DNA of 64,000 nucleotides from Craspedostauros australis (Eukaryota > Bacillariophyta > Bacillariophyceae > Mastogloiales > Achnanthaceae), in assembly GCA_026770025.1 (NCBI GenBank), contig JAMXDE010000017.1, positions 124,001 to 188,000 of the forward strand, written 5' to 3'. Both the position numbers and the translations under genes were made by a program. How positions within the stretch are numbered: the first letter of the stretch is position 1; every line of letters begins with the position of its first letter. This document shows positions 7,481 through 64,000 of this stretch, one piece after another. The notes below the pieces were generated by a model. That model saw nothing but the letters and a program-made list of their open reading frames with translations, was not told the origin of the DNA and ran no database searches.

Positions 7481-9682
7481 ATGGACGACAGGAAACCCTC
7501 GCCATCGAAAGCAGGGACGAAGCGCGAGATCGATGCATCTGCTGCTGCGGAAGACGGCACTGTTGACAACGATGACCGCGGCAGCGCTGAGAGCTTCAAT
7601 GGCCCCTCCGCTTCCAAGCCGTTGCACGCAGCCATGCAGCAGCATCCCGATGACAGCCAACTGCCCAGCACGGCCATCACGGTGGATCTGACAGGTCAGG
7701 TGGTGCGACGCGAGTCCAAGCCACGCGAGTTGGCGGCCGCACGTCTATCATCCAGCAAGACGCGATCGCCGGCCGCTGCGTCCAAACCAAACGCCATCAA
7801 GGGCGATATGCCACAGATCATGTCGTCGCAAGACTACGCCACAACAGCGAACCTCTTTGCATCGCCCGATCCCAACATGACGCAACCCATCATCACGCCC
7901 GGCGCCGTGCGTATATCGGCGCACGGCTTTGATGTTACGGACACCAACACGACGGCGGATGTCGATGCACCTTCGCAGCAGCAAACAGAATCGGTCGACG
8001 CACCGTTGCAAGCCGCCGTTCAAGAAGCCACGGCGGTCAATGCCACGGCCCGCGACGATATCGAACAGCAAGTGCGACGACGCATTCTGGGAGAAACGGT
8101 CGAACCGTTGCGTGTCGAAGTTGTGCGCAATACCGTGGAAGACGACACGCCAGCTGAACCCACTCGTTTGGAACAAGCCTTGCAACTGCATGACGCGCAC
8201 GAAGCCGCCGTGAAGTCGGATCTGGAGCAGCGCAAACGGCTTGCCATGAGTATCGGTGTTCCGTGCTGTATTTTGACGTTCTTTCTGTTCGTCCTGGCCA
8301 TCGTCTCCGCCTTCGTCGATCTGGGGGATATCCATCGCAGCGGCGATGATCATTCCAATGCCGTGTACAACGGCGATGCCAACGGTTTCGACATGACCAG
8401 CAGCAGCAGCAGCAGCGATGACACAGCGCCCATGATCAATTACACTACGGAAATATTCGAGTTTCTATCGAACCACACCAGCGATCCCAACACGTTATTG
8501 GATGCAAATTCGGCGCAACACAGCGCATTGCAATGGTTGCAATCCAGCCAGTCGGTCTTTCGCGAACCAACCTCCAACGCGGTGGATCTACTGCAACGTT
8601 ACGCTTTGGCCACGCTGTATCATGCCACGCACGGCAACAACTGGACGCGCAATGACAAATGGCTCACCGATGCATCCATCTGCGTCTGGTATCCCGCCGC
8701 GTTCGGTCAGTGCGATGACGACGACATCCTCATCAGTCTGGCGCTGCGCCAAAATCAACTCGACGGCGCGATACCACCCGAGATCGGGCTCCTCTCCGGT
8801 ATGACGGAACTCTCGCTGTCCCTCAACAATTTCGCGGGCACGCCGCTGCCGACCGAGATCGGGCAACTCATCAACCTCGAAGAGCTGCGCGTTGCGAGCA
8901 ATGAATTGGTGGGCAACTTTCCGACCGAAGTTGGTGCATTGACGCGTCTGCGATCCATCCGAATCGAGCGCAACGACTTCGATGGGAGTCTTCCGTCGGA
9001 GCTTGGGAAATTGATCCATGTGCATCACTTGACGATGTCGCGCAACGATTTCGTGGGCGAATTGCCGACGATGTTGGGGCAGCTCAACAGCCTTCGTAAG
9101 TACCTCGATTGTGTTGCATAGGGATTGCGTGAAAATGAAATTGCGCTGCAGCGGAGCTGTTGTGTTATCAAATGTTCCATGCTCTGCTCTTCCTCACACG
9201 ACCAATCAACGCCGTCGCTGCCCAACTACATTCAACGATGTTTCGAACCCAATTTTACACATGCAGGCCGTTTCGATGTCTCGTACAACAATTTCACAGG
9301 CCCAATCTCTTCCCACTTCGCGAATTGGAGATTCGCAGAACAGCTCCGTTTCCATGGGAACCAATTCAACGGCTCCGTCAGCCATCTCTGCAGCATCAAC
9401 GAAACGCGGTATGAAATTGGTGTCCCGTCCGATGTGCGATTTGAAATCTTCATCGATTGCGAGATGCTGGAATGCACGTGTTGCATGAGCTGCGATAGTA
9501 ACGGGCCTTGTGGTCGCGGCCCGTCACGAGGCCCGGGTGGTGGGTCCTGCGATGCCAACGATGGTGACGGCGGCGGCGGCGGCGGTGGGGGCGGTGGTGG
9601 AAATGGCGGCGGTGGTGGAAATGGTGGTGGAAATGGTGGTGGCAAAGGCGGCGGAGGTGGTGGAGGCGGAGGTGGTGGTTGA
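7481..9682 (+). CDS. LRR type II membrane protein A, with glycine-rich C-terminus
   Basis: Exons 7481-9095 and 9267-9682 flank a 171-nt intron (GTAAGT...ATGCAG, phase 1) and encode 676 residues. In order: disordered N-terminal region with VDLT (68-71), NLFA (124-127) and the family juxtamembrane motif (192-211, starting DIEQQVRR); transmembrane helix 254-279; extracellular DPNTLLDANS...ALQWL segment (335-353); YALATLYHATHGNNW with WL and paired Cys (374-411); LRRs from about 416; and exon 2 with the last repeat and the ECTCCMSC cluster. A run of roughly 50 Gly with a few Asn and Lys follows, which the paralogues lack. The start is a CCACCATGG. The orientation (N-terminus inside, LRRs outside) is inferred. 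There is no kinase domain, so signalling would need partners. A role in surface recognition is likely but unproven. Confidence 0.85.
9563..9680 (+). repeat. GGN trinucleotide repeat coding for poly-glycine
   Basis: Imperfect GGC/GGT triplets with interspersed AAT encode the Gly-rich tail of LRR protein A and run right up to its stop codon. Imperfect trinucleotide expansions of this kind vary easily in length. Confidence 0.85.
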
Positions 9683-10134
9683 AAATCCGCACAATCGCTA
9701 CTCACATCCAGCCCAACACAAACAATAGAATAGTGTAATATGATGTGTTTGCATGACTTAATAGTCTTCATTTCGATACCATGAAGGGATGGGTGCCCTC
9801 TCTCGAGCGAGATCATGACCTTGCATTCGTCCTGTTAGGTCGTCTCCTCTCTATCGGTGCATAATCATATGCGCTGCGTCCACAGCTTCATTTCGAACAT
9901 CTACCGTTTCTTATCTAGACATTTGCGGACGGGCGCATGACAGACGATGACAAGGTTCGCCAACCAAACACGCAAATTTGATGTTTGATGGGTTGATGTC
10001 GGCACTTCACACATCACCAAAATACGAGCGGAGCCGTTCAAAGAATCATCCAACGACCGGGTCACATGGCAGAGAGCACCATACTCGTACTCATACTCAT
10101 GCAATAACGCTGTGGTACGCAGTGCAAAGTGACC
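9683..10134. other. Intergenic region between LRR gene A and the BMT5-like gene
   Basis: No recognised coding or RNA feature. It should contain the terminator of the LRR gene and the promoter of the methyltransferase gene. Confidence 0.5.
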
Positions 10135-14326: not shown

Positions 14327-17300
14327 ATGGGTCTGGATGAGTTCATTTCCATGGCGGAAAGCGTCGACGAGGACTTCATCCTCAACGATGAGGCGAACAA
14401 TAGCAAGCGCGATGATGACGACAATGACAATGATAATGACAATGATAATGACAACGATGGCGGCAATGACAATGGCAATGACAACGACAATGGCAATGAC
14501 AACAACAACGACAACGACAACAACAATGATGCCGGCGGCAGCGACCACAGCTTGGGAGCGCACGACGATGTGTTCGACTCACAGCTCGAGGCCGACAGCC
14601 ACAACAGCAACATGTCCATCAGCCATCATGGCTCGTCTACGTCCAATTCGAGCGAACAATCCAGGATCCACCTGGCGCAAAGGGAGACGAAGCGCGTCTT
14701 CTGGGTGCGTGTCGTCGTATGCTGCGTTCTGCTGCTGGCCACGGGCAGCCTCAGCGCGATCATGTACCTGTCCATCCGAGACAGCGTCAACGAGAACTTT
14801 GACCTCAAGTTCCGTGACCAAGCAGCCACCATCCTCAATTCCTTCGAGACCCATTGGTTGGAAGGACTCACGGCGTTGGACACGATGTCCATCTCGATTC
14901 TGAGCCACGTTCGAGCCATCCGAGAGAAAGGCGCAGCGTCCACCGCTACACCATCGAGACTGCCGTCGCCATGGCCGATGGTCACAATACCGGATTTCGA
15001 ACGACGCGCGGCCGTCACACGTCAGCACGGCAGATTTACCACGCTGACTCTGTGCATGCTTGTTCACAATGAACAGCGCAGAGACTACGAGGCATACGTG
15101 CAGAACAACCTCGATTGGATTCCCGCTGGCCGCGTCTACGAAGCGCAGACCAAACAGGCCGAGTGGCAGTTTGGCAACTTCCACAAGCAGGAGGACGCGG
15201 CGGGCGGACGGCGCATGGAAGCAGAGCACAAAACGCTCATGACGCGTGGCCCTGTCCAAGCAAGTCACTTCAACCCGCACGGCACGTCCGTCCGTCATTT
15301 GGACGAAGCACAGAATGTAAATGTTGCAGAAGAAATATGGACAGTCGGACCGACGGGGTATTTTGTGATGCCGGATACGAACGAGACCGTGGACGACGGT
15401 TTTCTTCCGTACGTTGTGGCGTGGCAGAACGCCCCCGCAGATCTTTACGTCAATCTTGACCTGGGCCGTTTGCCGACAACCTCCGAGACCATGTGGTTGG
15501 CGCACGATACCCGATCCTTCACCGTGGAAAAATCCAGCTTCCTCTCCGACACGCTGGAAACGGAAAAGGGGAGGTCGTTGCCAGATTCACCGACAACGGG
15601 AATGCGGTATCCGCTCATCGACACCATGGAAGATCCCGTCACGGGCGAGATGAAAGACGTGGTCGTCGCCATACTGGGAGGTACGATCTTCTGGGATGCG
15701 TACATGCAAGTCGAGCAACTCCCGTCCACCGCCAACCACATGTACATCGTGCTCCGCAACTCGTGCGACCAAAGTTTCACGTTCCAGGTGCAGGACGGCG
15801 ATGTCTTGTTCATCGGGGAGGGCGACTTGCACGAGTCGAAGTTCGATGACTACCTCGAGGATTCATTCTCCATGCAGGATCTGTCTGAGGGAATCCAACT
15901 CTTGGGGTATGGCAACGTGACCCTCAATACGGACTATTGCCCCTTCACGCTGGACGTGTACCCCAGCCAAAGGATGAAGGACGATCACACATCGTCTTCG
16001 AACCGCCCATGGATGTTCACGGGGCTGGTTGTGGCTGTCTTCCTCATCACTTCCTTGATCTTCCTCGGCTATGACCGACTTGTGGAACGCCGCCAAAACA
16101 TCACGCTGGATTCCGCGAGGCAGAGCCATGCAATCGTCTCTTCGCTGTTCCCAAAGAGCGTCCAAAAACGTCTCTACGAGGCCAGCAACCTCGAGGTTGT
16201 GAAAGGCCACGGCGGAGCACGTCGACGCAACAGCTTTGGGCTCGGCGATCCGTACAAAAACCAAATGATGACCCAGAAGATCAAGATCAAGGACTTCATG
16301 GCCAACCGCAACTCGTTGGCAGACCAAACGGACGAAGCAACGAAGGACAGATCGGTCGACGCTCTGCTCAAGATGTCCAGCGCTGGCTCAAGAATGGCCG
16401 ACAGCGTGCGCGATCTCGATGCTGCGCTGGTCGACAAGTCGTTGAAGGGCAGATCGAAGCCCATTGCTGATCTCTTTCCCGACACGACGGTCCTCTTCGC
16501 TGACATTGCGGGCTTCACGGCCTGGTCCTCCACGCGCGAACCGTCGCAAGTCTTCACTCTCTTGGAGGCAATTTACGGCAGCTTCGACCGTCTGGCCGAA
16601 CGTCGCAAGGTCTTCAAGGTGGAAACCATCGGCGATTGCTACATGGCCGTCACTGGTCTGCCGGACCCGCAGGTCGAGCATGCCGTCATCATGTCTCGGT
16701 TCGCCTGTGCGATCCTGTACAACATGCGCAAGATCACGCGCGAATTAGAGGTGGAGCTGGGACCCGACACCAACGAGCTGTCGATCCGCATCGGCTTGCA
16801 TTCTGGTCCTGTCACGGCCGGCGTCCTGCGAGGGCAAAAGTCCAGATTCCAGCTCTTCGGCGATACGGTCAACACCGCCAGTCGCATGGAGAGCACGGGT
16901 GCTCCAAACCAAATCCAATGCTCCCAAAAGACTGCCGATATCCTGACGGAGTTTGGCAAAGGTGGTTGGATCGTCCCACGTGAGGATATGGTGGAAGTGA
17001 AAGGGAAGGGGACCGTCCAGACGTAAGTTGTTGTCGTGTTGTTGCGATTGCTGTTATTCTCTGCGGAGAATTGGTTGGTATTGAATCCGTAGCGCTCTGA
17101 TTCGTTCGCATCCATCAAGATTTGATACGCATTGCATTGCATGCCCACTCTCGCGACACACACACGATGTCACTCACACATTCCAAACCATCGCGTCCAC
17201 TAAATACTATCCACAATCTCAAATCGGGGTTATCACGATATTGCGCAATTTGCCTCCGCACGTGCACCATCTGCAGGTACTGGCTTCGGTTCCGTCGGAA

Positions 17301-18831
17301 TAAGTCAAAGGGCGGCGGCTCTGGCGACACAGTTTCCATGGGATCTTCAAAGCAGTCCTACAAGAGCACCCCGACCGCGATCACCGAGACGATGAAATCA
17401 GACAAGCAAACAAACATGGACCGTTTGCTGGAATGGAACGTCGATCTTCTGTTGGGATTGCTCGGTCGTGTTGCGGCCTCCAGATCACCAGCACCGACAC
17501 CGGCACCGTCGGACCCGCTGACAAAGGCCAATGCCCGGAGCAGCAGTCTCTTGACAGGAACAGCTGAGTCCAGCTCGCGACGCCAACAAACATCAACCCC
17601 CGGGACTTCCAGTGAGACGGCCAGCACGGATGGCAGCGGCGACGAGTCGCTCAACTCGCAAGAGAGCGAGGAGAAGGAAACCGTGCTGCCTCGAGACGAG
17701 TATCGGGAGTCGATCCAGCTGCCCCGTTTCAACAACGGCACGCAGACCCAGAGCGTCGGCGACCTGGATAGCTCCCACAAGGAGCTGGTGAGCGATGAAG
17801 TGCAGGATCAGCTGCGTGGATATGTGACGCGGATTGCCGGCCTCTACCAGGACAACCCGTTCCACAACTACAACCACGCCAGCCACGTTACCATGTCCAC
17901 GAACAAGATCTTGATGCGCGTCGTGGCCAGCGACAAGCACACGCTGTACTCCAACAACGAAGAAGAGGGATTCATCCGAAGCATGGACGCGTCCACCAAT
18001 TCCACATCGTCCACATCTCAGGAGTTTTCCGACCGCGCCGCCAAGATGCACGATTACACGTTCGGGATCACATCGGACCCTCTCACTCACTTCGCTTGCG
18101 TCTTCGCAGCGTTGATCCATGACGTGGACCACCCGGGAGTTTCCAACTCGCAGCTGACGCGCGAAGAGCATGAACTCGCCGCCAAATACAAGGAGAAGAG
18201 CATCGCGGAGCAGAACTCCATCGACATCGCGTGGGATATCCTGATGGGTGGCGATTACCCGGCTCTTGTGGAATGCCTGTTCGCCAACGAGGCGGCGAAG
18301 AGCCGATTCCGCCAGCTGCTGGTGAACATCGTCATGGCGACTGACATCTTCGATCCCGATCTGGTGAAGCTGCGTAACAGGCGATGGCAGAAGGCATTCG
18401 CTTCGTCATCGCAGGACGAGATGACCAAGGACGATCTGATGGACCTGAAGGCGACCATCGTGATCGAGCACATCCTGCAGGCCGCCGATGTGAGCCATAC
18501 CATGCAGCACTGGCACGTGTACCAGAAGTGGAACCACCGGCTGTTCCAGGAGATGTACAGGGCGTTCATGTCGGGCAGGGTCCCGCTGGATCCTTCGCTG
18601 GGTTGGTACCAGGGTGAGCTGTGGTTCTTCGACAACTACATCATTCCGTTGGCGCGGAAGCTGAACGAGTGCGGAGTGTTTGGCGTGTCCGGCGACGAGT
18701 TCCTGAACTACGCGATGATGAACAGGTCCGAATGGGAGCAGAAGGGAGAGCAGATCGTTGAGGAGATGAGGAACGACTACACTCACGAGAGTGCCAAGGT
18801 GGAGAAGGAGAAAGAGGACCTCCAAATCTAA
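14327..18831 (+). CDS. Membrane nucleotide cyclase-phosphodiesterase fusion 1
   Basis: Exons 14327-17022 and 17277-18831 join across a 254-nt phase-2 intron (GTAAGT...CTGCAG), giving 1416 residues. N-terminal acidic Asp-Asn tract (about 29-68); TM1 126-148; extracellular sensor region 149-562; TM2 563-581; linker; class III cyclase domain 718-899 with metal aspartates D726 (FADIAGF) and D770 (ETIGDCY), substrate residues E766 and Q842, and catalytic N849 and R853. After the intron, TYWLRFRR completes the cyclase end. A Ser/Thr-rich linker leads to a class I phosphodiesterase with HNYNH (H1095), HDVDHPG (H1180) and DVSHTMQHWH (D1303). One protein would thus make and degrade a cyclic nucleotide at the membrane. 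Bifunctional guanylyl cyclase/phosphodiesterases are known from diatoms, including a pheromone-responsive one in Seminavis robusta. GMP versus AMP specificity is uncertain. Confidence 0.9.
14411..14530 (+). repeat. GACAAT-type hexanucleotide repeat coding for Asp-Asn
   Basis: Imperfect GACAAT/GATAAT/GGCAAT units encode the alternating Asp-Asn tract near the N-terminus of the cyclase-phosphodiesterase. The second fusion gene has no such tract. Confidence 0.85.
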
Positions 18832-19470: not shown

Positions 19471-21805
19471 ATGATGCTGAACGCGAAAGACGGGAAGAAG
19501 GCAATGGCGGGCATTTCCGCGCCAAAGGTGAAATCAGCACCATCGTCAGCATCCTCCATCACCATGGCCAAACCACAAGGCAAACCACGTGCATTGAGGA
19601 AGAAGGACCCGTTGCTGACCATCATGGTGTTCGTCTGCGCGATGACCGTCGCTGTGATGTGCTGGAAGACATCGCAGCTGCATCATGACGATCGGTCGCA
19701 GAGCACCTTCGTGCCACCCGTATCGATCGATCAGGCATCCAGCAACAAGATCGCCCGGCCCGCGCCTGGTATCGATCGGCAGCTTGACAGAGCTCCACCG
19801 CCGCAATCGATACAACATCGACAACAAACTGTGGATGACCAGAAGAAGCCGTTCACAAAGTTGACGCCAAATGTGGTGTCCGACGCTGCGGCAGCATCCA
19901 CCAAGGCTTCCAAGATGCCGACCAAAGAGCAGCAGCAGCAGACACAACAACGACAAAGACCGCAGAAACAATTCACGGGTGATAAGCCGATGAATATTGT
20001 GCTGCTGTATGCAGATGATTGGAGCTTCACGACGCTGGGTGCACAGGGCAACAACTTCGTCAAAACTCCGACCATAGATCGGATGGCAAAGGACGGCATG
20101 CTGTTCGAGCAGAACTGCGTCACCACATCCATCTGCATGGTCAGCCGTGCCACGCTCTACACAGGACAGTACGCATCGCGTCACAAGACGTGGGCCAGCT
20201 ACAAGAACCTGACCATGTACGAAGACGACAACTGGGAGAACACCCTCTATCCCATGCTCAAGGCATCGCCGCACAACTACCACGTCGGCTTCTTCGGAAA
20301 GTGGCATCACACCCCGCCGCCCAAGAAAATCGACACCTTCGACGAGCATCGGTTCTACGAAGGCCGCCACTACAAGACGAGAGGCAACGTCACGAAGCAC
20401 ATCACGCAATGGAACGAGGAGGATGGCATGGGATTCCTCGAGCAACGTCCCAAGGATCGCCCCTTCATGCTCACGATCAGCTTCTTCGCCACGCATGCTG
20501 AGGATGGCACGCAGGCGCAGTACCGACCCATGAACAGCAGCATGTGGATGTACGCCAACTCCGAGGTCCCCGTGCCCAAGACCTTTACGGATCGGCATTG
20601 GGACGAGATGCCGTCTTTCTTCAAACATCCCAAGAACATCGGGCGCAAGCGTGCCGTGAGTCGGTACTATCCGGAGGAGCGGTATCAGGCCATGATGAAG
20701 AACACGTACCGCATGGCGACCGAAGTGGACACGGTCTGTGGCAGGGTCATGGACGAACTGGAACGGCAAGGAGTGCTCGATGAAACTTTGATCATCTTCA
20801 CGACAGGTACGAGTGCGATGTGTGGTTGCGGAGCACAATTGGAGACGAACATGCTCTGCTCTCTTGCTGCAGTTGTATACGCTCCTCTTGTACTTGATTG
20901 CTTGCTTCATGTATTCATGCCTCTTCCATCTTCACCGTTCGCTTTTCTCACAACATCATCCTTGTTCATGGTCGCTGGGAATATTGACATACTTTTTCAC
21001 ACACGCACACACATGCATGCATGTACGCTTGTATGCATGAACCGAATGTTTGGAACCAATGGATGGTTCAACCAATTGCTTCTACCCTTTTGCTTCCGCA
21101 GACAATGGCAACTTCCATGGTAAGCTACATATGACTCGCTTGCATTCTGTTCATCTTTTCGCATGTTGGTACCTATACTGCAGTCGCAATGAATGTCACC
21201 TCTACTGTGTGTGCTATGGTACTCTCGTGCCTGTTCCTCTCCTAGTATGTCAAGGATATCGTTATGCTCACACAGCCTTCATAAACACATTCGCCGCGAT
21301 GGACGAAAACAATGGCACAGGACAACATGGCTTGGCTGAGAAATGGTTTGCCTACGAGGAGTCGCTTCGAGTGCCTCTCGTCATCCGAGATCCTCGCATG
21401 CCGTTGCAAACACGAGGAATCCCCAGCGATGATTTCACCCTCAGCATCGATCTCGCACCAACCATACTGAGCGCGGCTGGTATTGAGGTGCCGGAGCGCA
21501 TGCAAGGTCGCGATATTGCTCAGCTGTACCTGGATCCAGCGAAGAGCAAGGCGGACTGGAGGAAGGAATTCTTCTACGAATGGATCGGCACCACGGATGC
21601 CTTCCCGACGAACTATGCGTTGGTGCGCAAGGACAAGAAGTACATCCTGTGGCCGCAGTTCGAGTACGAGCAGGTCTTTGACCGCAACAAGGATCCGTTC
21701 GAAGAGTTTGACCTTGCCAACGAGACTGACAGCAAGCTGAAAGAAGCGATGAGGATACGAATGAAAACGCTGCAGCGGGAGGTCATCGCAGGGGCCAAGA
21801 TGTAG
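19471..21805 (+). CDS. Membrane-anchored sulfatase (alkaline-phosphatase superfamily)
   Basis: Exons 19471-20806, 21102-21119 and 21321-21805 give 612 residues. Introns are 295 nt and 201 nt, both phase 1 with GT-AG ends; the middle exon is only 18 nt. The product is a type II membrane protein: basic N-terminus, helix 48-65 (PLLTIMVFVCAMTVAVMCW), a Gln/Pro-rich stalk, then the sulfatase domain. Visible family marks are NIVLLYADDWSF with metal-binding D182/D183, the nucleophile site C222-M-V-S-R226, GKWHH, and the late metal site D446-N447-G, which the micro-exon encodes. Family members hydrolyse sulfate esters after conversion of the Cys to formylglycine. The substrate is unknown; sulfated polysaccharide is a guess. 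The usual Pro of C-x-P-S-R is Val here. The gene lies between two convergent cyclase-phosphodiesterases. Confidence 0.85.
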
Positions 21806-29718: not shown

Positions 29719-31980
29719 CTAGCTGCAGCTCGCGCAGCAGGCACAATCGACTTTACAATCCAGCACCAGGATGTCGGTGAGTGATGCATCATCACTCGTC
29801 AAAGAGCGACACATTGCATCCGCGGATCCGGTCAGCCCGTTGCCGTATGCTACAAACGATTGGAGTGTGTTGTTCCATGCCGCGTAAGACTCTGGGATGG
29901 TCCCGTTCAGTTGGTTGCCGTGAAGGTCCACAACCTCTGTGCAGCGACGGGAGGAGAATAGCGCAGTGAAGGAGGGCGTTTGAGAAGGAAAGGTGACAGA
30001 GCCACACAGTCAGAAGACGCATAAGTTTGGAGGGGTGTGCTCTGGCCACGACGTTGACATTATCTCTGACATTGGACCAAACCATCACACAAGCCAGACA
30101 AAAGAAATCTGACAAGCCCCCCACCCACCCTGCAATACAAGTATGTACGGTGCGGTGCAGACAGTCGCCGGGTGCGAGTCGATCGTACTCGTACATCACA
30201 CTACCTACGTACCAATGGAAGGCAAATCACCCAACCCGTCCGGAAGTGCCGAAGCAAGTTGATTCTGGGACAGATCCAACGTTTTCAGGTGCTGGAATTG
30301 GCGATACGTTGCTGGGATCTGGCCAACGAGCTGATTGTTACGCAGCCTGATGATCTGCAAGGTTTCGATGCGGCTCAGTTCCGGTGGCAGGATGCCGCCG
30401 AGGTTGGCATTGCTGAGATGCAGGATTTCCAGTTTGCGCAGTCCACGCAGGGCACGTATCGATGTGGGTTGCAACTGTTGCGAGTACGGGACCTGCACGA
30501 AGTCCTTGTGCTGTCCCAGGTTGTTGCCGTCGAGGTTGAGGACGCGCAGGTCTTCGAGCAAGGCCAGTTCGGCAGGGATGTAGCCGTTGAGGTTGTTGTT
30601 CATCAAGCTGAGGTTGGCGATGTTGGTCAGCGTGGCGGACTGGCCGCAGCGTATGGAGGGTGATATGGACGTCCACCAGCGACACAGCGGCGTACCATAG
30701 TCCAACCAGTTGTCGTTGATGTCCCATTCATCGCCGTTGGTTGCGTAGTAGAATGTCACCATCGCGAATGGATGAAGCACCCTGTGGGAGTATTCGGGCT
30801 CCAAATCCTGCGCTTCTGTGGCAGGGATGAGCCATTGGTACGCCCGGTACGCCGGTGATTCTGGATCCAGCAACGCATTGGGATCGGGCGAGCTGGCTCG
30901 AAGGAAGTCGAACAGATCCTGCTCCAGCTGCGGGAAGGGAACTTCATTGACAAGGTCCGCATCCGTATCATTGACAGGCTGCATCTGCACGTCGCCGTCA
31001 TCCGGTCCATCGCCTTCGTCGCTGTCGGACCTGCTGCCATCACGACTGTCGGTCCTGTTGCTGCCATGGTCATTATCGTTGCTCTCGTCGTTGCTCTCGT
31101 CTGGCGAATCGACGAATCTCTGGTCGCTTCTGGCCGGGCTTCGAGTCGCAATGACAGCACCCAAGACGACCCCGATGATGAGGAATACGCACGACGTGAA
31201 CACGAACAAGATGATGTAACAGCGCCTGTAATTGCGTTCGGATGGGAAACTTTCGCTCACAGGCGGATCCTTGGCATCGTCCATTTGCTTCGAACTGCCA
31301 TCGCGTTGCATTGCACTCACCGCAGTCGCGGCGACAGCGGTATCCAAAATCTCCTGCCGCACCTGCGTTTCAATATCACCGAGCGAAACTGCAGTGGCAA
31401 CGGTGACAGTTGCGGCGCTGCCTGTTGCTCCTCTGGTTGCTGCTGCCGCTGCAGTCGTCCTGGCCGCTCCTTCGTCCTCTTTCTGTGTGTTGCTATGTGA
31501 ATTCTGCGATGATGATGATGATGATGATCTAGACTCGCAGCTGCTAGTGCGTGGGTTGGTGGTTCGTTCCTGACGACTCGCGGTTGGATGGCGCTCAAAT
31601 TCCTCCAAACTCTTCTTGTCGTAATCTAAACTGTCGTTGCTTCCACATCCAAGTTCATGTCCAAGTTCATGTCCACGCCCAAGACCATGCTCTTGGTTGG
31701 TACTTTCCTGGGCGCTGCTAATGCTCGATGGATCGTCCCTGCTGCAGTAGCCACTACTTGTAGCAGGTGTCTGTGTACTTGCTTGGTCCTCATCCGTCAC
31801 TGCCAAGATCTGCTCCGACCACCTGCGCAGCGCCACATTGCTGCGCTGCCGTTGCATCTCCGTTGTTGCGCCGCTGAGCTCATGCTGGACGAGATCATGA
31901 AGCGGTATGTGCGTGATGTTGGCAGCATGGTCGATGCGATTGGCACGCGATGGTGTAGCTTCGCCGTCTGCATGATCCAT
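29719..31980 (-). CDS. LRR type II membrane protein B
   Basis: Exon 1 (31980-30213) and exon 2 (29936-29719) flank a 276-nt phase-1 intron (GTACGT...CTGCACAG), giving 661 residues. Cytoplasmic part: SEQILAVT (55-62), a small HELG-HELG duplication (104-111), Ser/Gln-rich stretches, and the juxtamembrane motif at 202-221 (starts DIETQVRQ). Transmembrane helix about 254-278. Extracellular: very acidic Asp/Asn/Ser spacer, DPNALLDPES...AYQWL (366-384), FAMVTFYYATNGDEW with WL and a Cys pair, LRRs from about 455, and in exon 2 the last repeat (NQLNGTIPESY) and the tail DCKVDCACCASCS. No NLF motif is seen, unlike in the paralogues. A recognition or adhesion role is inferred from the architecture only. 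Confidence 0.83.
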
Positions 31981-34371: not shown

Positions 34372-37128
34372 ATGCAAGATGATGGCTATGCCCGTCAGAT
34401 CCTGGAGCTGACACAATCCTCGCAGCATGGCAATGAGGACAGCGGCGCTTTGAGCAACCACAGCACGGACATCGTGGGTGATCAAGGCACAAGGAGCAAG
34501 ACGAAGAAGAAAGCCAAGGCCAAGCAGAAGGCCAAAATGAAGAAAGTTAGCAAAGCCAAGGGTCAGCCCAACGCGGCAGCCGGTTTGGCGCGAACGATCT
34601 CAGTGGGCGATGTGCAGCCCACAAATCGAGGAGGAAGGGCGACATCACAAGCGTCTGTGGCCGCGAAGCCGGAGTTGGCAGGAAGTACTTCCGCAAGCAC
34701 TGCCGCGTCGACCGGCAAGAAAAAGGCCAAATCCAAGAACAAGAAAAAGTCTGGCGCCAACACGACCAGCGAAGATGGCGCGAAGAAATCCAAAAAGAAA
34801 AAGAAGAGCAAGGCGGGCGCCAACAACGGCACGGACCGAACAGATGCGGACGCCAACAACGGCACGGACCGAACAGAGGCGGATGTCAAGATGGTCGCGT
34901 CTGCGCCATCGAGGGCCAACACGGTGGACGCCACCGGCAAAGTGACGTACCCTCCATCCGCGGTGCCGCGTGACACCAACGCGCAAGATCAGAATGCCAA
35001 AGACCAGAAGGAAAAAGCGATGGCTGGCGGGACGGCTGTGAATTCTGGAGCATCCACCGCGAAATCGTCCAATGGCAACCAAAAGGCGTATGGTGGTGGC
35101 AAGAATGTCGACGACGATGATGATGGCACTGCCAATCTATTTGCATCGAACACGCGTTTGTACGAAGCAGGAGCCGCGCCGCTGGATTCTCTATCCCGAG
35201 CCACGACGGACAGCACCAATTTGTTCGGTGACCGTGCGATGGTAGCACAGCCTGGCGCATTCCGAGTGGATGGTATCGATGGTGCGGCCAACACGATTCG
35301 CGAGATGATGGACGCACCGCGAGGATTGAGACATGACAGCACTCACATGTCGGAGAATAACGACAACGGCGAGACGAATGCCCCGACCGCGCCAACCAGC
35401 GTCAACGCGCAGCAACCGATCCCCGCAGTCTCAGTCGCCCAGGCAATCTGTACCAACGAGATGGAAGAAGAGCTTCGCAACGATATCATATCATCAGCAG
35501 TCGCAGCCACCAGGGTACAGCCCGCGCTGTCGGCCAACAGCAAACACAACAGCGACGAGGATACAGACGATGACGATGATATCGACGATGAAACAGCCTT
35601 CAGATCCCGCCTTATCATGCTTGCTCTTGCTGTCGTTTGCGGTTGCCTCACTGTTCTGGGCATTGTGCTGGGAGTCTTGCTATCGAAAGGGACGTCGTCG
35701 TCGTCGTCGTCGTCATCATCATCCGAGAATGCCAATGACGACATACGCACGACACCGCCCACAATTGCACCGCAATCCGCAGGAACTCTTCGGAATCCAT
35801 TGACGGACAAAGAGGCTGATGATTTGGAAGCTTGGCTCGAGGAGAACCTCCCGTACGATGACACCGTCACATCTGACGATGCGGGAGCATTCAACTGGCT
35901 TGTTTCCGTCAGCGCGCGCGTCGAAGCAATTGGTCAAGGTACCGGCGATCTCCAGCCCTCTGCATCCAACCCACCATTCGATACGAAGGACAGGATCCTG
36001 CAGTATTACGCGCTGGCAGACTTGTACCACACATTCAAAGGCGACGATTGGAACGAGAACGACAATTGGCTCACCACATCTGATGATGCTGACCGGTTGG
36101 ACTACTGCAACTGGCACGGCATCGTATGCTTCGAAGACGATGGTACGAAGAACGTCAAGGAAGTGCGGTTATCTTCAAACAATCTGGTAGGCATTCGATT
36201 GCCCCGGAGCATCGGTCTCTTCTCGCATGCCACGTATTTCGATATCAATGGCAATCCGATCAACCGGGAATCATTGGAGATGCGGGGCCCGGAGGGAGTC
36301 AACCTCTGCCTCAAAGATGGCAACGGCGGTCGTAGGCACAGCATGCGACGCAATCTGCAAGGCACACAGCCCAAACCACAGGGCATTCCCACGACGGTCG
36401 GTTTCATGACGAATCTCGAAGCTCTCCTGCTTGGCGGGTCTGGATTGGGTGGGACGATCCCGACGCAGATGGGGAACCTTATCAAGCTCACGACTATCAG
36501 CCTCCATGATACATACGTGGTGCTGCAGATTCCCAGCGAGATTGGTAGGTTGGCGGAGCTCGCGGATCTAAACCTGAGTACGAACTTTATGTGCGGTCAG
36601 TTACCTTCGCAGTTAGGAGAGTTGTCGAAACTGAGTAAGTGGAGTGGAATGAAGTGGAACCAACGAGACGCGCAGTCCGTTGAGGGCTGGTATGCACAGG
36701 CGAAGCTCCGGCAATATCCACGATGACTTGCATTAAAATTCGCCGCTCGTTGCTCACAGCCTCCCCCCGTGCACGTTCACTCCTGGAATTGAAACCTCCC
36801 CACCGCACACGTGCGCATTGACATCCTACTGTTGCTCGTCCCGACGAACATCCTTCACCAATTTGACTCAATTTCCCCAGCATCAATCAACATCGAGAAA
36901 AACAGCTTCTCGGGGACCATTCCATCGCAGCTCATGAATTGGCCGGCCAGTATCGAGGTATTCATCCGAGCCAACCGATTTTTGCAAGAAGATACTGTGC
37001 AAAACACGTTTTGCTCAACCCAGAAGTTCTTGACAAGCGACGAATTTGCACTGGAGGCAAGCTGCGGTGAACAGGCCTGTTCCTGTTGCACATCTTGTTG
37101 CGCAGATGGGTTTTGTCAGGACGCCTGA
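34372..37128 (+). CDS. LRR type II membrane protein C
   Basis: Exons 34372-36634 and 36881-37128 flank a 246-nt phase-1 intron (GTAAGT...CCCCAG), giving 836 residues. Cytoplasmic part: ARQILELT at 7-14; two Lys-rich tracts (43-63 and 116-147), the second followed by a duplicated NNGTDRT; NLFA (255-258) and NLFG (283-286); juxtamembrane motif at 363-382 (starts EMEEELRN). Transmembrane helix about 414-438, followed outside by poly-Ser. The membrane-proximal segment (AGAFNWL) is shorter than in the paralogues. YYALADLYHTFKGDDW and CNWHGIVC precede LRRs with an insertion of about 40 residues after the first units. Exon 2 ends with CGEQACSCCTSCCADGFC. Start is in GCACCATGC context; the open frame upstream is leader. 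Function is inferred as surface recognition. Confidence 0.84.
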
Positions 37129-38148: not shown

Positions 38149-38153
38149 AGTCT

Positions 38154-38867: not shown

Positions 38868-38882
38868 AGTCGGGAGTCTTGT

Positions 38883-46594: not shown

Positions 46595-46599
46595 AGTCT

Positions 46600-53260: not shown

Positions 53261-53301
<41 letters not shown>

Positions 53302-53384: not shown

Positions 53385-56100
53385 TTAGTTGCAGTCGGTG
53401 CAGCAGGTGCACTCCGCTCCGCAAACATACTCAAGTTCCGACGCTGGGTTCCGGATTGTGCAGAATGTATCTTCGACCGCACCTGATTGAAGGGGATTCC
53501 CATCCAATTTGATCCACGACATCGAGGATGGCCAAGTTGTGTATGTTTCCGGGATGGTTCCGATGAATCCATTATCCGACAAGTCAACTTTGCCTGCAGA
53601 GGTGGATGTCGAGGTGACATGGCGTACATAGCATTGGGGCAACGAGGAAAGAACGACAGCAATGAGGAGGCGTGGCGTGCAAGCGCAGATAGTGAAAACA
53701 TGATCGCAACATCAAATCAAATCGGTAGAGTGTCGAGACGCGTGAGAGATGATCCGGTTCATGTCTACAGTGCTCCACGAAACACCAGTCATGCAAGCAA
53801 CACAGCAGCAACAACGTCCATCCACCCCTCGACGCACCCGCCGACATGAGTAATCCAGCCACCACCGCCACCACCGCCACCATACCAACAATGCACTTAC
53901 GAATTTCTTGCAGACCTCCCAATTCGTCTGGAAGCTGACCAACCAACGAATTCTTCGGGACGTCAAGCTCGTCCAGCTCCACGAGCCTCCCCAACTCCGA
54001 TGGCAGGGTCCCAACGAGGTAGGAGTCCTTGAAGTAGATCTTGGAAAGTCGCGTGCAGTTCCCGATTTCCGTCGGAATCGTTCCAGCAATCCCAGAGAAA
54101 GAGGTTCGGAGCTCCTGCATGTTGGTCAGCAGACCGATGGTCGTCGGCAGGCCGACCTCGGCGGAGGAATCTCCGACCTGCAAATCTCGCTGTCGCAATC
54201 GAACCCTCTTGTTGCCACCGCCGAAGCTGGTGCGACCGGATTCGAATGGATTTTTGGAAACCTTGAGAGAGGCAATTCTAGTGAGCACACCGATCTCGGG
54301 TGGGATAGTACCTTTCAAGTTGTTGTCTGAAATATCGAAATTGTTGACCAAGCCGTCTCCGTCACACGTGATTCCATGCCAAGTGCAAAAGCCTGCGCTC
54401 GTCAACCAGCCGGTGCTGGTAGTCCAGCTGGTATCCCCTTCGGTGCTGTAGTAGATGCATGCTAACGCGTAACGTTCACGCGCCTTGGCCTTTGCAGGCC
54501 CAGCGTTGACAGGAATGTCATCCTCGGACGAAATCCTGGTCAATGCCAGCCACTCGAATGCTTGGTATTGTGGCGATGATGTATCGTCGAGCGCTCCTGG
54601 GTTGACGGTAGCCATCTCCAATTTGAGCCAATCCAGAAACTTGAAATGATGTGATTCAAGCTCTTGAGGTGCTTCCGTTGGGCCTGCAACTCCGTCGCTG
54701 TCGGTGGGCGGTGACGTCCTCTCACCACCAGCGTTGTCTCCGTTTCCAGTATCGCCGTTGCTGCTGCTGCTGCTCCCACTGTCGGCAGATCCCGTCAAAA
54801 CAAACACGGCAGCGACGATGATGGCGATGACGAGACAAACGCAACAGATCAACAAGTAGAGGAGCGTCGTTCTCGATAGAAGCCCGTCGCCACCACTGCT
54901 GGTGTCGTCGTCCTCTTCCTCTTTCTTCTTTTTCTTTCTGTTGCTGTTGTTGTCGTTGCTATCGCCGTCTGCGTCTGCTTCGTTCACAACCGCCACGTCG
55001 GCATTGAGAGGTTCATCTTCCCGAATGGTCATGACTTGGGTGGCCTGCACAGCATCGCCAATAATGTCCCTTCGGATCTGGTCCTCCAGATCGTCCGTTG
55101 CGACCGCGTTCGCAATCGAGAGCTGGGGCTGATTGGGATTGGCATTTGATGCCTGAGACGTTCTGCTCTCCATGCCTTCGGATGCAACGGACGCAGGTCC
55201 AATTCTTTCCACGCGCGCAGATCGGGCGAGTGGCTGCACGGACGATGCGTCGCTGTCACGATGCGATTCCTTTGAGCTCATCGTGCGCACCGATGGATTC
55301 GTCGTGAACAAATTCTCTTCGTCGCTGTCGCTGCCTGCTGCTTTGAGATCTTCCTTCTCCTTCCTCTGCTTGCTTTCCGTCGGCGCAGGGTTGTTGGAAT
55401 ACATCGCGATCTTGGCATTGACGCCATCCGCATAGTCTTCGCTCATCGGCGGAACGCCCGGTGCTGCCGCGTTCGTTGCGTTGGACGCCACCGTCGCACC
55501 ATCGTCGTGTTGATTCGACAGCACCTGCGGTGACCGAAGCGGCGAATGGGCGGTTGGTCTCGGCGAGACAATTGCGGCAGCCGCCCTGCGCTTCACATCG
55601 GCGTCGGTAAGTTTCCTGCCTCCCGAGGCGCTGTGGCCTCCTGCATTATTCGCACCAGTCTGCTGCATCTTGGCTCGGTGCCGTCGATCGTACGATCGAA
55701 CCTCGCGAGCGCCCACTGTCACGTCGGATGCGCGTCGCGGAGAAACGGGGTCGCTGGCATTTGTTGTGACACTGGCAGTTGTTGTGACACTTGTTGCGAT
55801 GCTCGCAGCAGCGCTCGAGCGATGTCCGGCCGTGAGGTCCAGGATCTGCTGGGATTGTTGGTACACCAGCGAATCCGTCTGCTGTCGCTGCAACTCCGAC
55901 ATCGCTTGCACATCGTCGGCGTGGTCATCCTGTGCAGCAGTGGCGGCCACAGACGGTACTCGTCGCGCTGCTGCTGTTGCCAGTACGCTCGGTGAAGACT
56001 GAAAGGCATTGTCGCTGTCATCCACGACGATCAAGGAGTCGCTGTTCAAGCGGACTCCGGCGCCAAATCCGTCGGTCGGTCTTCGTTGGTTGGATGGCAT
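53385..56100 (-). CDS. LRR type II membrane protein D
   Basis: Exon 1 (56100-53901) and exon 2 (53593-53385, 209 nt) flank a 307-nt phase-1 intron (GTAAGT...CTGCAG), giving 802 residues. Cytoplasmic part: ELQRQQTDSLVYQQSQQILDLT (in part, 69-90), RAKMQQ (142-147), VNAKIAMYS (227-235), DEENLF (260-265) and the juxtamembrane motif at 337-356 (starts DLEDQIRR), then a Lys/Glu/Asp tract. Transmembrane helix 412-436. Outside: NPGALDDTSSPQYQAFEWL (500-518), RYALACIYYSTEGDTSW, WL and C-W-x-x-x-x-C, LRRs from about 587, and in exon 2 the last repeat and CGAECTCCTDCN. It is a close paralogue of the partial gene at 64000-61539 on the same strand. Start: the first ATG before the family-like sequence; upstream frame is leader. 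Confidence 0.86.
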
Positions 56101-59100: not shown

Positions 59101-59419
59101 CAAACACAAAGCACAAAGATTCTGATGCACAAAGAGCCAAAGAGAGAAAGGGAGGACCATCCGAACAAAACCTCAAAACAACAAAGCACACCACTCAACA
59201 CCATACTCGAGCACACCAACAACAGACATCAAATTGCCACTCATACTCATATTCATGACACAGTGCATGGTACTCATACAAATAAAAGCCATCGAAGACA
59301 CCACCATCGATATTTCTGCCATACTACTAGGCAGCTCAAACTGCACACTTCCTCAACAGCGAATCCAACACCAATCATCCAACGTCGATCACCCATCAAC
59401 CATCGACCATCCTCTCAAA
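56101..59419. other. Long region without a supported gene
   Basis: 3.3 kb with only short, mutually overlapping frames of no recognisable content. A GA run lies near 56595 and a CT run near 57463-57481. The right end is the leader of the ankyrin gene; its frame is open from 59234 but low-complexity. Confidence 0.5.
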
Positions 59420-60478
59420 ATGCCAAATGTTACGAACAAACAACTCATTCATGCTGCCAAGGCAGGTGACTTGTCGGTGTTGAAGGAATGGAAGAAGCAG
59501 AACGAGACGCAGAATAGAGGAGTTGATGTCAACAAGGTTACAGACAACAATGGTTTCACTCCCCTTCATGAGGCATGTTACCATGGCCACCTGGAGTGTG
59601 TGAAATACCTCATCAAATCATGCGGGGCCTACGCCGGCTGCGAAGACAAATGTGATTCCACTCCCCTTCATGGCGCATGCATAGAGGGTCACCTGGAGTG
59701 TGTGAAGTACCTCATCGAATCATGTGAGGCGGACATCACCTGGGAAGACAGCGATGGTTGCACTCCCCTTCATGACGCATGCTGCAACGGCCACCTGAAG
59801 TGTGTGAAATACCTCATCAAATCATGTGAGGCGAACATCAACTGTGAAGACAACAATGGTGACACTCCCCTTCATGACGCATGCTACAATGGCCAGCTGG
59901 AGTGTGTGAAGTGCCTCGTCGAATCATGTGAGGCGGACATCAACTGCAAAAACAACGAAGGTTGGACTCCCCTTCATTCGGCATGCCACGATGGCCGCCT
60001 GGCATGTGCAAAGTACCTCATCGAATCATGTGGGGCCAACATCAACTGCAAAGATATCAATGGTCGCACTCCCCTTCATTGGGCATGCATGAACGGCCGC
60101 CTGGAGTGTGTGAAGTACCTCATCGAATCATGTGAGGCGAACATCGACTGCAAAGACGACGCTGGTTGCACTCCCCTCTATTGGGTATGGTACGGGGGCA
60201 ACATGGAGTGTGTGAAGTACCTCATCGAATCATGTGGAGCGAATATCAATGGCAAAAATAATGATGGTGACACTCTCCTTCATTGTGCATGCCAATGCCG
60301 CAAGATGGAGCTTATCGAGTACCTCATCGAATCAGCCAATGCCGACATCGACATCCAAAACAACAACAACGAAACACCCCTCGAAATGATGGGTGCAGCG
60401 CATTACAACAAATTCAAGATATTGATCATGAAGCGTCCCAGGCACCGCAGCCTACAACTGCAACAACGCTTACAATAA
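59420..60478 (+). CDS. Ankyrin-repeat protein, truncated relative to an ankyrin-BTB ancestor
   Basis: 352 residues from an ATG after CTCAAA. About ten ankyrin units, mostly exactly 34 residues long (pattern DG.TPLH.AC..G.LECVKYLIESC.A.I), run from about residue 43 to 330. The family mediates protein-protein contacts. The Cys in ESCEAN and GACxxG recurs in almost every unit, and the units are very alike at the DNA level, so they have recently duplicated or been homogenised. The frame stops at TAA 60476 within a Gln-rich coiled coil (LQLQQRLQ). The same coiled coil continues in frame after the stop (NEEENEQLQQQL), followed by BTB remnants, so the reading frame was probably longer once. Confidence 0.8.
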   Translation: MPNVTNKQLIHAAKAGDLSVLKEWKKQNETQNRGVDVNKVTDNNGFTPLHEACYHGHLECVKYLIKSCGAYAGCEDKCDSTPLHGACIEGHLECVKYLIESCEADITWEDSDGCTPLHDACCNGHLKCVKYLIKSCEANINCEDNNGDTPLHDACYNGQLECVKCLVESCEADINCKNNEGWTPLHSACHDGRLACAKYLIESCGANINCKDINGRTPLHWACMNGRLECVKYLIESCEANIDCKDDAGCTPLYWVWYGGNMECVKYLIESCGANINGKNNDGDTLLHCACQCRKMELIEYLIESANADIDIQNNNNETPLEMMGAAHYNKFKILIMKRPRHRSLQLQQRLQ

Positions 60479-61510
60479 AACGAGGAAGAGAATGAACAAC
60501 TGCAACAACAGTTGAGACAGCAGTTGAAGCGAAAGAAGAGAATGAACACAAACACAATAGCCACAAGAGAACCACCATCAGCATCGGAAAAGACCGGCTT
60601 AGATCCTTTCATACCGAGAACAGGGCAGACATCATCTTCTTGTGTGGACAGGGCAACGAACAGCAACGAATCAAAGCAAACGCTGAAGTCCTCATGGTCA
60701 CTGTCCCATCCATTGAGACACTGATCGACAAAGCAATCCAACATCAGCACGCGAATGATGACACCCAAGACGGCGCGGCCCCATGCAAGTAACCATCCCC
60801 CTTCCCATTCTTCGACCAAAACATTCCAATACATCCTCCAATGCATCTACACAGGCAAAATACCCTTCAATGACAGCGCTCGTGACAACGCCGCCGCTCA
60901 CATCGGCACTCACGCCAACACTCACCACGATACAGATGCCTCTCACCAGCCAACTCCCATCTTCAATGGACACGACGATCTGCGACAGCTGATCCTTGTG
61001 GCCAACGAGTTCTGCTTCTAGCGACTCAAGCTTGTTCTTGAAGCGGAGTTGGTCCGTAAGCACATCACAAGGGACAACATGATAGTGATAGATGCATTGA
61101 TATTCGCCGATCAACACAACTGCTTGGTGTTGAAGGATGCAGCAATGCGAATGGCAGCTGGAAGTGAGAAAGATATATTAACTCATCCAGATTTCAGCAA
61201 GCTGGTTCCACACCACCAACTGATGTTAGGTATTCATGTCCTGTGCAGTGGGGGAGCTGAGAGTGATGTCATTGATAATGAGCACAGCCACATGTCCATG
61301 TTGCCTCATCATCGTTGGAGCCAATTCAACACACGGGGTACGAACTATTTTCTGGCGCGCTGCAGCTGTCCGGGTACAACAGAATGTACTCGTAGTCAGC
61401 TTGATCGTCTAGTTGCAAAATTTCTTTACCCATGGTGCCCTGATCTACTCCGTGTTTCTCACACTCCTCACGTATTACGTGAATCTTCAAAATCGTTGAG
61501 AACGTCATGA
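60479..61510 (+). pseudogene. Decayed BTB/POZ continuation of the ankyrin gene
   Basis: After the TAA at 60476 the ankyrin frame continues through a Gln/Lys coiled coil to about 60620. BTB-like sequence then appears in another frame (RADIIFLCGQGNEQQ, then NAEVLMVTVPSIETL) and ends at a TAA near 60790. From about 60810 the original frame again reads BTB core, TFQYILQCIYTGKIPF and LRQLILVANEFCF, then a TAG at 61019, then RLKLVLEAELVRKHI and the back-helix DALIFADQHNCLVLKDAAM. Two in-frame stops and at least two frameshifts in one domain indicate decay, though undetected introns could explain some of it. Sequence after about 61215 shows no domain. Confidence 0.7.
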
Positions 61511-61538
61511 CGCCGCCATGGGTTGAGCGGGCGCCTTT

Positions 61539-64000
61539 CTAGTCACACCCAGTGCAGCAGGTGCATTCCGCTCCACACATGAATGACATGGATACAGCCG
61601 GATTGCCAAGGCCGCAAAGTGTTTGCTCGACGGCTCCTTGGTCAAATTCATTACCTCCAAGCGAGATTCTATCCAACGGTGCTGGCCACTTGGTGTACGA
61701 GGCAGGGATGGTACCCTTGAGTTTGTTGTCGGATACAACGAAGGTGGCTGTAGAAGTGACGTTGTTTGCATGTGGGCGGTGATTGATAATGAGATCTCAA
61801 CAGAGGCAAAAAGCAGCAATGTGAGTGAGAATCATAAACTGCACATGGTATGCACATGCAAGTACTCTGCACCATCCGATTGTCGTCCAGAACACCACCC
61901 AACGCGTCCGCAGACAGCAGGGCGGCAGCTCAACCACCGTGCACCAGCACCACTTACAAATCGCAGGAAGGTCTCCCAATTCTGCCGGAAGCTGCCCAGT
62001 CATTGCGTTGTCGTGCAGATCCAAAGTTGTCAGAGCGTTTAGCTTGTCCATCTCGGACGGAATGGTACCCGCAAGACCAGCTTTCTTGAATAGGAATGCC
62101 GTGAGACTGGCGCAGTTGCCGATCTCGGTTGGAATGGGACTGGCGAAATTCGTATAGCCAATCCTTAGCTGTTCCAGATTCGTCAGCAGACCGATCGTTG
62201 TTGGTAGACCAGGTGGAATGGCGGAGATCTCACTTGCCGTTGCGTTCAATTTCGGGTCTCCCGTGATACTGCCGCCGCTAAACGGATTCCTGGCCATGTT
62301 CACAGTCGTCATTGTTGTGAGGATCCCAATCTCTGGCGGAATGGTGCCCGTCAAGTTGTTGCTTGGCATCTTGAGAGCATCAACGAATCCATCGCTGTCG
62401 CAGAAGACGGTGCTCCAACTGCAGAAGTCTGGTTCAAGCAACCATTTGCTTTTGTCTGCCCATGTGGTATCCCCGTTGGTGCTGTAAAATATCGATGCCA
62501 ACGCGTATCGCTGTTTCACATGCGATGCTGTGATGTTCAGATTGCTGTCTGATGAGTCTATCGCACCATCGAAAAAGGCGACGTCTGACAGCAACCACTC
62601 CAATGCCCTGTACTGCGGTGATGATGCATCGTCCAAGATTCCCGGGTTAATGACTGCTGTCTCGGCTTTTAGCCACTCTGAGACTTGCGAACGGAGCACT
62701 TCAGGATCTTTCGTTGCATCCGTCGGACTGCTGGCCTCGGCTTTGTCTTTGTCTTGGTTGTCGCTACTACCCGAGGATAATTCAATAGACACGCCAACGG
62801 CAATGGCGATGAGCACCAGACAGATACCACCGATGAGCATGTGCAGGCGTCTCTTCTTCACCATCTGTTGCTCGCTTGTTTTCTCGCCGATCTCGCTAGC
62901 TTGCTTCATCGTGGTGTTGCCAAGCACAGCGGCGTCGCCATCCGTAGTTCTGTCTTCGCGAATGGCCGTCACTTCCGTGGCATGGACGGCGCCGCCGATG
63001 ATGGTCTGACGGATCTGCTCTTCGAGATCGTCGGTCGCGACGGCATTCGCGATGGACAACTGCACATCACCGACGCTGGATGTCTGGAGTCTCTCCGCTT
63101 CGATCTCGAACGGTCCGGATACCTCGGTTGGGTCTCTGTCTCCGCGAAGCGCGCCAATGAAGCATGGACTGCTGTTTGCGCTGCCCCGTGATTCAGCCAA
63201 ACCAATGACACTGCCGTTCGGTGGAGCGCGAAAGAGATTCTCTTCGTCGTGACTTTGCCGTCTCTTGGCATCGCTTATAGTATCCTCCTCTGGTTCTTCA
63301 TTCTTTTCATTTGGCCCGTTGCCGTCGTGCTGCTTCGTGGGCGTGTCATCGTTGTGAGAATACATGGCGATCTTGGCGTTGATTCCATCCACGTTGCCTT
63401 CCAGCATCTGCGAAATGCCGCTGGTGGATGGATCGGCGCAGCCCCCTGAACGGTTTCTGTCCATCAACTGGTTTGGCAGGATCTTTTTGGCGCGTTGTGC
63501 TGAGCGGGGTGAGGATCCGTGGGTGGCAATTGCGCCAGCAAGAGCCGCGCTCTTGTTTTTGGGAACACCATCACTGCTTTTCTTGATCACGGTGGAGGCT
63601 GTCGAAGCACGGCTCTCTTGTTCCATCTTCGCCCGATAGGGCCGATCGTGCGATCTGGCTTGGCGGTTGTCGGTGGACACAGATGTCGATGGTGCGGACG
63701 AAAAGGAGCGGCTCGATCCACTTGCATTGTCAGCACTTTCATCTGCGGTGGGAATGCCAGACGACGAACCTACCGAACTGCGCCGGGTGCCCACACCGGT
63801 GGTGACAGAGGACCGCCCGTTCTGGTCACTTGTGAGATCAAGGATTTGCTGGGATTTGTGCCGGACCGACGGATCAGTTTGCTGACGTTCCAATTCGGAG
63901 GTCTCCGTCGCATTTGCGCCATTGTCATCGTTGTGATGGTCGCCGCTTTGGTCGGTGGAGGCTGAGATGGTCGTGCTCACGGTTTCTCCTATTGCGACTG
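61539..64000 (-). CDS. LRR type II membrane protein E, 5' end outside the window
   Basis: Exon 1 runs from the window edge to 61958 and exon 2 is 61747-61539 (209 nt), joined across a 210-nt phase-1 intron (GTAAGT...CTACAG). The frame is open to base 64000 with no convincing ATG, so the start lies outside. Cytoplasmic part: SELERQQTD and SQQILDLT, RAKMEQ, INAKIAMYS, DEENLF and the juxtamembrane motif (starts DLEEQIRQ). Transmembrane helix LHMLIGGICLVLIAIAVGVSIEL. Outside: NPGILDDASSPQYRALEWL, RYALASIFYSTNGDTTW, WL with a Cys pair, LRRs, and in exon 2 the last repeat and CGAECTCCTGCD. It shares more cytoplasmic motifs with protein D than the other three do, and the same 209-nt last exon, so D and E are recent duplicates. 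Confidence 0.85.

What the first reader, a model, noticed from the sequence alone, without database searches (positions are those of the whole stretch)
7481..64000. Shared 20-position cytoplasmic juxtamembrane motif in all five LRR membrane proteins
Proteins A-E, otherwise disordered and dissimilar before the membrane, all carry one gap-free motif 40-60 residues before the helix: [DE]-[ILM]-E-x-[QE]-[VIL]-R, two residues, I-[IL], two residues, [AT]-V-x-[AP], two residues, V. Examples start DIEQQVRR (A), DIETQVRQ (B), EMEEELRN (C), DLEDQIRR (D) and DLEEQIRQ (E). The hydrophobic spacing fits one or two amphipathic helices. With no kinase in these proteins, it is the best candidate for an internal docking or oligomerisation site of the receptor family. 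I know of no named domain that matches.
Basis: partly seen in the sequence, partly recalled or inferred. Interest (0 to 1): 0.82.

Follow-up and report, generated by a model that had tools for sequence, protein, structure and literature searches.

The report
Shared tail motif in diatom receptors
A group of diatom cell-surface proteins with very different, floppy inner tails all keep the same roughly 30-residue segment close to the membrane, plus some shorter shared motifs, which suggests a common internal connection point whose partner is unknown.

Summary
All five LRR membrane proteins carry the gap-free motif. Leave-one-out profiles find it at the true site in 8 of 8 strict members, with 0 of 2000 shuffles as high in each. 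Queries from D, H and B found nine genes, all LRR membrane frames; a pattern and a profile over fetched LRR DNA added four. It marks a subfamily: 25 of 25 other LRR frames tested lack it, 12 of them near-copies. It is a conserved island: non-synonymous difference 0.08-0.16 against 0.39-0.59 in linkers, and more identical than the ectodomain in 19 of 21 pairs. No PDB or above-threshold Pfam relative.

Two corrections. The tails share further short motifs in a fixed order. Amphipathic-helix spacing is not supported by hydrophobic moment or periodicity, though AlphaFold2 draws one low-confidence helix over the motif.

Most likely a docking element for a shared cytosolic partner; self-association or trafficking remain possible. 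Conservation in other diatoms could not be tested.

The parts
8030..8131 (+). M4 motif in protein A
7481..9121 (+). Protein A frame: tail, membrane helix 8240-8314, LRRs
7844..7927 (+). A tail motifs NLF (7844-7858) and PGAVR (7898-7927)
31303..31407 (-). M4 motif in protein B
30205..31980 (-). Protein B frame: tail, membrane helix 31150-31221, LRRs; M1-like SEQILAVT at 31795-31818
35428..35532 (+). M4 motif in protein C
34372..36726 (+). Protein C frame from its ATG: M1 QILELT 34390-34413, NLF 35128-35151 and 35212-35232, PGAFR 35248-35283, membrane helix 35611-35682, weakly matching LRRs
55018..55122 (-). M4 motif in protein D
53584..56100 (-). Protein D frame from its ATG: M0 56011-56055, M1 55831-55899, KIAMYS block 55396-55455, NLF 55306-55323, membrane helix 54796-54867, LRRs (the last part of the frame probably reads into an intron)
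62955..63059 (-). M4 motif in protein E
61797..64000 (-). Protein E frame, 5' end outside the window: M1 63831-63899, KIAMYS block 63357-63416, NLF 63231-63248, membrane helix 62778-62846, LRRs

Best explanation
M4 is a short, possibly helical docking element in the cytoplasmic tail of a kinase-less LRR receptor-like subfamily. The LRR ectodomain would sense a ligand or contact outside. The long disordered tail would carry an ordered string of short binding motifs (M1 ILxLT, NLF, PGAxR and, nearest the membrane, M4). M4 would hold a shared cytosolic partner near the membrane, so that many different ectodomains feed one internal pathway. Shown: the motif, its restriction to LRR membrane proteins in this genome as far as searched, its constraint at protein level, and the ordered accompanying motifs. 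Inferred: N-inside topology, disorder of the tail, helix, docking, and a common partner.
For: Non-chance motif. Peptide queries from D, H, B, J and K2 gave 8, 8, 6, 1 and 2 matches up to E 10, each in a frame with LRRs. In a profile run over 2674 open stretches of fetched DNA the hits with E below 0.02 were all LRR frames (that DNA was fetched mostly for LRRs). Constraint against linkers and against the ectodomain, 19 of 21 pairs. Conserved positions include polar ones: Arg 7 in 8 of 8 strict members, Glu 3 in 7 of 8, as expected of a specific interface. Accompanying motifs exceed shuffles: M1 9 of 13 carriers against 0.64 expected, NLF 8 of 13 against 0.17, PGAxR 7 of 13 against 0.03. AlphaFold2 draws one helix over the motif in both runs.
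Against: No partner is known. Helix confidence is low (pLDDT about 50-66) and amphipathic periodicity is not significant. The tail side of the helix is the more positive one in only 6 of 10 members on a simple count. 25 of 25 other LRR frames tested lack the motif, so the wider family does without it. PGAxR is not specific to M4 carriers (13 of the 25 others have it). One genome only.
Confidence: 0.5

Rival explanations
1. M4 is a self-association helix: neighbouring receptors pair through it beside the membrane, and ligand binding changes the pairing.
For: Position 25-79 residues before the membrane helix in 13 of 13 carriers; low-confidence helix; on reading, member I carries an extra 8-residue unit within the motif, as a self-associating helix could tolerate.
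Against: No significant periodicity; an invariant Arg and near-invariant Glu lie among the hydrophobic positions. No multimer prediction could be run.
Confidence: 0.2
2. M4 is a trafficking signal, for example an ER-export signal built on a di-acidic D/E-x-E, recognised by coat proteins.
For: D/E-x-E at the start of the core in 7 of 8 strict members. The class of signal is recalled, from no call.
Against: About 29 columns are conserved, not three; on reading, F, I, K1 and K2 lack the di-acidic core; 25 other LRR frames of the same genome do without the motif.
Confidence: 0.12
3. M4 is a lipid-lying amphipathic helix that pins the tail to the inner leaflet.
For: Regular hydrophobic positions close to the membrane.
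Against: Hydrophobic moment not above shuffles in 8 of 8, and net charge of the core 0 to -3, unfavourable on an acidic inner leaflet.
Confidence: 0.05
4. Inherited similarity without present function: the genes are simply related by duplication.
For: Seven of the 13 carriers lie within about 76 kb on contig C15, and one clade of carriers is not rejected (AU p 0.144).
Against: Among D-G, linkers differ 3.4-4.9 times and the membrane helix 2.5-4.6 times as much as M4 at non-synonymous sites (from; linker alignments are gappy, which may inflate this). M4 is more identical than the ectodomain in 19 of 21 pairs.
Confidence: 0.04
5. AKAP-like helix that docks a protein-kinase-A regulatory-type dimerisation domain.
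For: Hydrophobic offsets -4, 0, +1, +4, +5 resemble those of a recalled AKAP peptide.
Against: The recalled AKAP pattern matches 0 of 8; PF02197 gave 0 matches in the genome, but its controls were silent too, so absence is not shown.
Confidence: 0.03

Closest known systems
Kinase-less transmembrane LRR proteins of diatoms, e.g. MRP2 and MRM2 of Pseudo-nitzschia multistriata (PMC6261938; passages read)
   Same: Membrane region plus LRR domain without a recognisable kinase; proposed there as pheromone receptors or adhesion molecules.
Tandemly duplicated LRR families of Seminavis robusta (PMC7335047; passages read)
   Same: LRR genes expanded by tandem duplication in a diatom.
   Different: No tail motif is described in the passages read; membership not tested.
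Plant LRR receptor-like proteins (recalled)
   Same: LRR ectodomain, membrane helix, no kinase, so a partner is needed to signal.
   Different: Here the tail is N-terminal, before the helix, with the LRRs after it, and 252-577 residues long in A-J (the true start of I was not in the fetched DNA); plant receptor-like proteins have a short C-terminal tail (recalled).

Membership tests
LRR receptor-like protein without kinase | LRR domain | tested here: met
   Pfam LRR_1 over its cut-off in 4 of 5 (A, B, D, E); C stays below cut-off (LRR_14 E 1.8e-05, 24.1 against 40 bits)
LRR receptor-like protein without kinase | Membrane helix before the LRRs | tested here: met
   A strongly hydrophobic stretch before the LRRs in 10 of 10 (A-J); helix drawn by AlphaFold2 in D and C, main blocks pLDDT 78-95. 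That there is only one such helix was not tested systematically
LRR receptor-like protein without kinase | No kinase domain | tested here: met
   No kinase family in the Pfam scan of the five frames up to E 1; the second exons were not scanned
LRR receptor-like protein without kinase | LRRs outside, tail inside the cell | tested here: inconclusive
   More positive on the tail side in 6 of 10; a Cys-rich end C-x-C-C-x-x-C after the LRRs suggests the outside
Known protein domain or solved fold for M4 | Match to a Pfam family or a PDB chain | tested here: not met
   0 PDB sequences up to E 10; Pfam: 5 segments scanned, none over cut-off, one chance-level match at E 0.11
AKAP-type docking helix | AKAP hydrophobic pattern (recalled) | tested here: not met
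   0 of 8
AKAP-type docking helix | RIIa partner domain in the genome | tested here: inconclusive
   0 matches, controls silent
Helix of the C13 LRR cluster (TEEDVADRVKERLEKEF) | Profile similarity to M4 above shuffled columns | tested here: not met
   43 of 100 column shuffles scored as high or higher

The most novel reading that the evidence does not exclude
The tails form an undescribed receptor signalling platform: kinase-less LRR receptors whose disordered tails carry an ordered code of at least four short motifs (M1, NLF, PGAxR, M4), read by shared cytosolic hubs. One candidate is the pair of guanylate cyclase/phosphodiesterase loci interleaved with the receptors in this cluster, which would couple LRR recognition to cGMP in diatoms.
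Probability: 0.15. Interest if true: 0.82.

Novelty: new variant of a known kind. Interest (0 to 1): 0.55.

Why it matters
Diatoms hold large families of LRR membrane proteins, two of them mating-type specific in one species, and how such kinase-less proteins pass a signal inwards is, to my knowledge, open. A constrained tail element common to at least 13 of them in this genome gives a concrete bait for finding that pathway, and the other ordered motifs give further baits.

Tried and rejected
Relation of the C13-cluster helix to M4: alike by eye, but 43 of 100 column shuffles scored as high or higher, so it is not claimed. AKAP docking: pattern 0 of 8, RIIa 0 matches with silent controls. Amphipathic alpha-helix: hydrophobic moment below the shuffled mean in 8 of 8. 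Periodicity at 100 degrees: conservation p 0.057-0.14 (four variants) and 0.18-0.25 (grouped residues, two variants), hydrophobicity p 0.46-0.74; for the best angle after correction p 0.21-0.85 and 0.08-0.46. None is significant. Calmodulin, WH2, FERM and dileucine patterns were weighed from memory only and not pursued. The SUMO-interaction likeness of M0 (SLIVVDDSD) and M1 (ILDLT) is recalled and untested. One origin of the M4 carriers in the LRR tree: the free tree needs 3 changes, AU p 0.144, so neither shown nor rejected (11 carriers against 15 others; F and I were not in it, and of the 12 C13-type rows only 3 were kept). Viral contigs: 43 stretches fitted the pattern, 0 were relatives. 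The NLF-PGAVR stretch of A as query found only A itself, so NLF and PGAxR rest on shuffle counts with patterns chosen after seeing the sequences.
Full report
Setting. The window is contig C15:124001-188000 of a 74.8 Mb genome in 90 contigs. Five frames, A to E, each read as a long tail, a hydrophobic helix and LRRs. An LRR remnant in a later frame ends in C-x-C-C-x-x-C (downstream of A, of B, C and E, of F and of I; none was found for D).

Is the motif real? It is gap-free in all five proteins. With profiles built on the other members, and close paralogues left out of training, the true site is the best site in 8 of 8 strict members (A-H), with 0 of 2000 shuffles as high in each. Of two members outside the training set, J is found (0 of 2000 shuffles as high). 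In I the best site is the start of its helix, but weakly (20 of 2000 shuffles as high), because on reading its motif holds an extra 8-residue unit.

Where does it occur? A 35-residue query from D gave 8 matches up to E 10: A to E, two more genes right of the window (F at C15:191904, G at C15:208288) and H on C11. The query from H gave 8, adding I on C16; B gave 6, none new. J on C1 came from a relaxed pattern over fetched LRR DNA and as a query found only itself. K1, K2 and K3 on C2 came from a profile run over 2674 open stretches of the fetched DNA, at E 0.00067, 0.00082 and 0.018; the next stretch, at E 0.64, is a 67-residue frame at chance level. K2 as a query found itself and K1 only. So single-peptide searches miss distant members and 13 is a lower bound. 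The DNA was fetched mostly for LRRs, so it is a weak test of specificity; the genome-wide peptide searches are the better one. Eleven of the 13 are in the LRR-ectodomain set. F and I are not: F's LRR frame is interrupted by about 1.1 kb, and I shows LRRs on reading.

It is not universal. The ectodomain query returned 152 matches, often several per gene, with 150 of 275 candidates scored. The free tree does not gather the 11 carriers it holds in one clade (3 changes), but a single clade is not rejected, p 0.144.

Is it constrained? Among D, E, F and G the non-synonymous difference in M4 is 0.08-0.16, against 0.39-0.59 in linkers and 0.37-0.41 in the membrane helix; synonymous sites are near saturation in most pairs, so no dN/dS is claimed, and linker alignments are gappy. 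In seven members M4 is more identical than the ectodomain in 19 of 21 pairs; A-C and A-G go the other way, and a block picked for being conserved has an advantage in such a count. F, with its broken LRR frame, is also the strict member with Glu 3 changed to Gln and a changed M1, which fits relaxed constraint but is one case.

What else is in the tails? Contrary to the finding, the tails share more. In D-G there are islands M0 (SDSLI), M1 (ELQRQQTD...QQILDLT), RAKM, KIAMYS and NLF, and M1 with its flank also aligns between B and G above shuffles (58 against a shuffled maximum of 51). Across the 13 carriers M1 occurs in 9 (0.64 expected from shuffles), NLF in 8 (0.17; I has NFF) and PGAxR in 7 (0.03; the pattern allowed other residues for R, as in K1 and K2), in the order M1, NLF, PGAxR, M4 in 13 of 13. 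Among the 25 others the counts are 1, 0 and 13. PGAxR is thus not specific to M4 carriers: 12 of those 13 are of the C13 type. The patterns were written after looking, so the shuffle figures flatter them. M1 of G as a genome query found only D, E, F and G, and the NLF-PGAVR stretch of A only A.

Structure. Two AlphaFold2 runs with five-row alignments (D first, C first) each put one helix over residues 23-48 or 23-49 of the segment, which spans the motif, at block pLDDT about 50-66; the main blocks of the membrane helix scored 78-95. Five rows are a thin alignment. The hydrophobic moment at 100 degrees is below the shuffled mean in 8 of 8. In one search the periodicity of conservation or hydrophobicity peaks at 4.2-4.5 residues, and nothing is significant after correction. 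The invariant Arg 7 and near-invariant Glu 3, four apart, sit among the hydrophobic positions, which argues for a specific interface more than a plain greasy face. That last step is inference.

Known relatives. No PDB sequence and no Pfam family over cut-off covers the motif. Kinase-less membrane LRR proteins are known in diatoms: MRP2 and MRM2 of Pseudo-nitzschia multistriata, suggested there as pheromone receptors or adhesion molecules (PMC6261938, passages). Tandem LRR duplicates are reported in Seminavis (PMC7335047, passages) and LRR enrichment in Nitzschia putrida (PMC9054022, passages). In the listings no title or abstract start shows a paper on such a tail motif; those listings were partial (20 of 54, 15 of 35, 12 of 19 and 15 of 92) and the library holds only open-licence papers.

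Reading. The best account is a docking element for a shared partner, 0.5; self-association 0.2; trafficking 0.12. The window also holds two guanylate cyclase plus phosphodiesterase pairs between the receptors. Cyclase/phosphodiesterase genes respond to sex pheromone in Seminavis (PMC8027222, passages; PMC5485032, passages). A link between receptors and cyclases here is neighbourhood only.

Noticed in passing
window 14327-18831 (+) and 22196-27117 (-): Two guanylate cyclase and PDEase_I pairs, in opposite orientation around a sulfatase frame (19471-21123), amid the LRR genes.
   Followed up: partly
whole genome G000: Silicon transporter family PF03842 rings 88 times, 27 of them above 800 bits: a large expansion, though other matches are fragments and some hold stops.
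   Followed up: no
C15:189127-192005 and upstream, locus L040: Gene F: LRR frame interrupted by about 1.1 kb, with the motif's Glu changed to Gln and M1 changed; possibly a decaying paralogue.
   Followed up: partly
C13, C17, C38, C3, C41 and others: A second group of frames, many of them with LRR matches, carries a different tail helix (TEEDVADRVKERLEKEF) before the membrane, on reading with 8-residue repeats in some; 29 matches.
   Followed up: partly
L040, + strand frame 0: A frame with long SQHxxIAAS-type repeats followed by a transposase-like stretch, next to gene F; likeness to piggyBac is recalled, not tested.
   Followed up: no
window 38883-44348 (-): Copia-type retroelement frame with RVT_2.
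   Followed up: no
window 59234-60478 (+): Frame with many ankyrin repeats.
   Followed up: no
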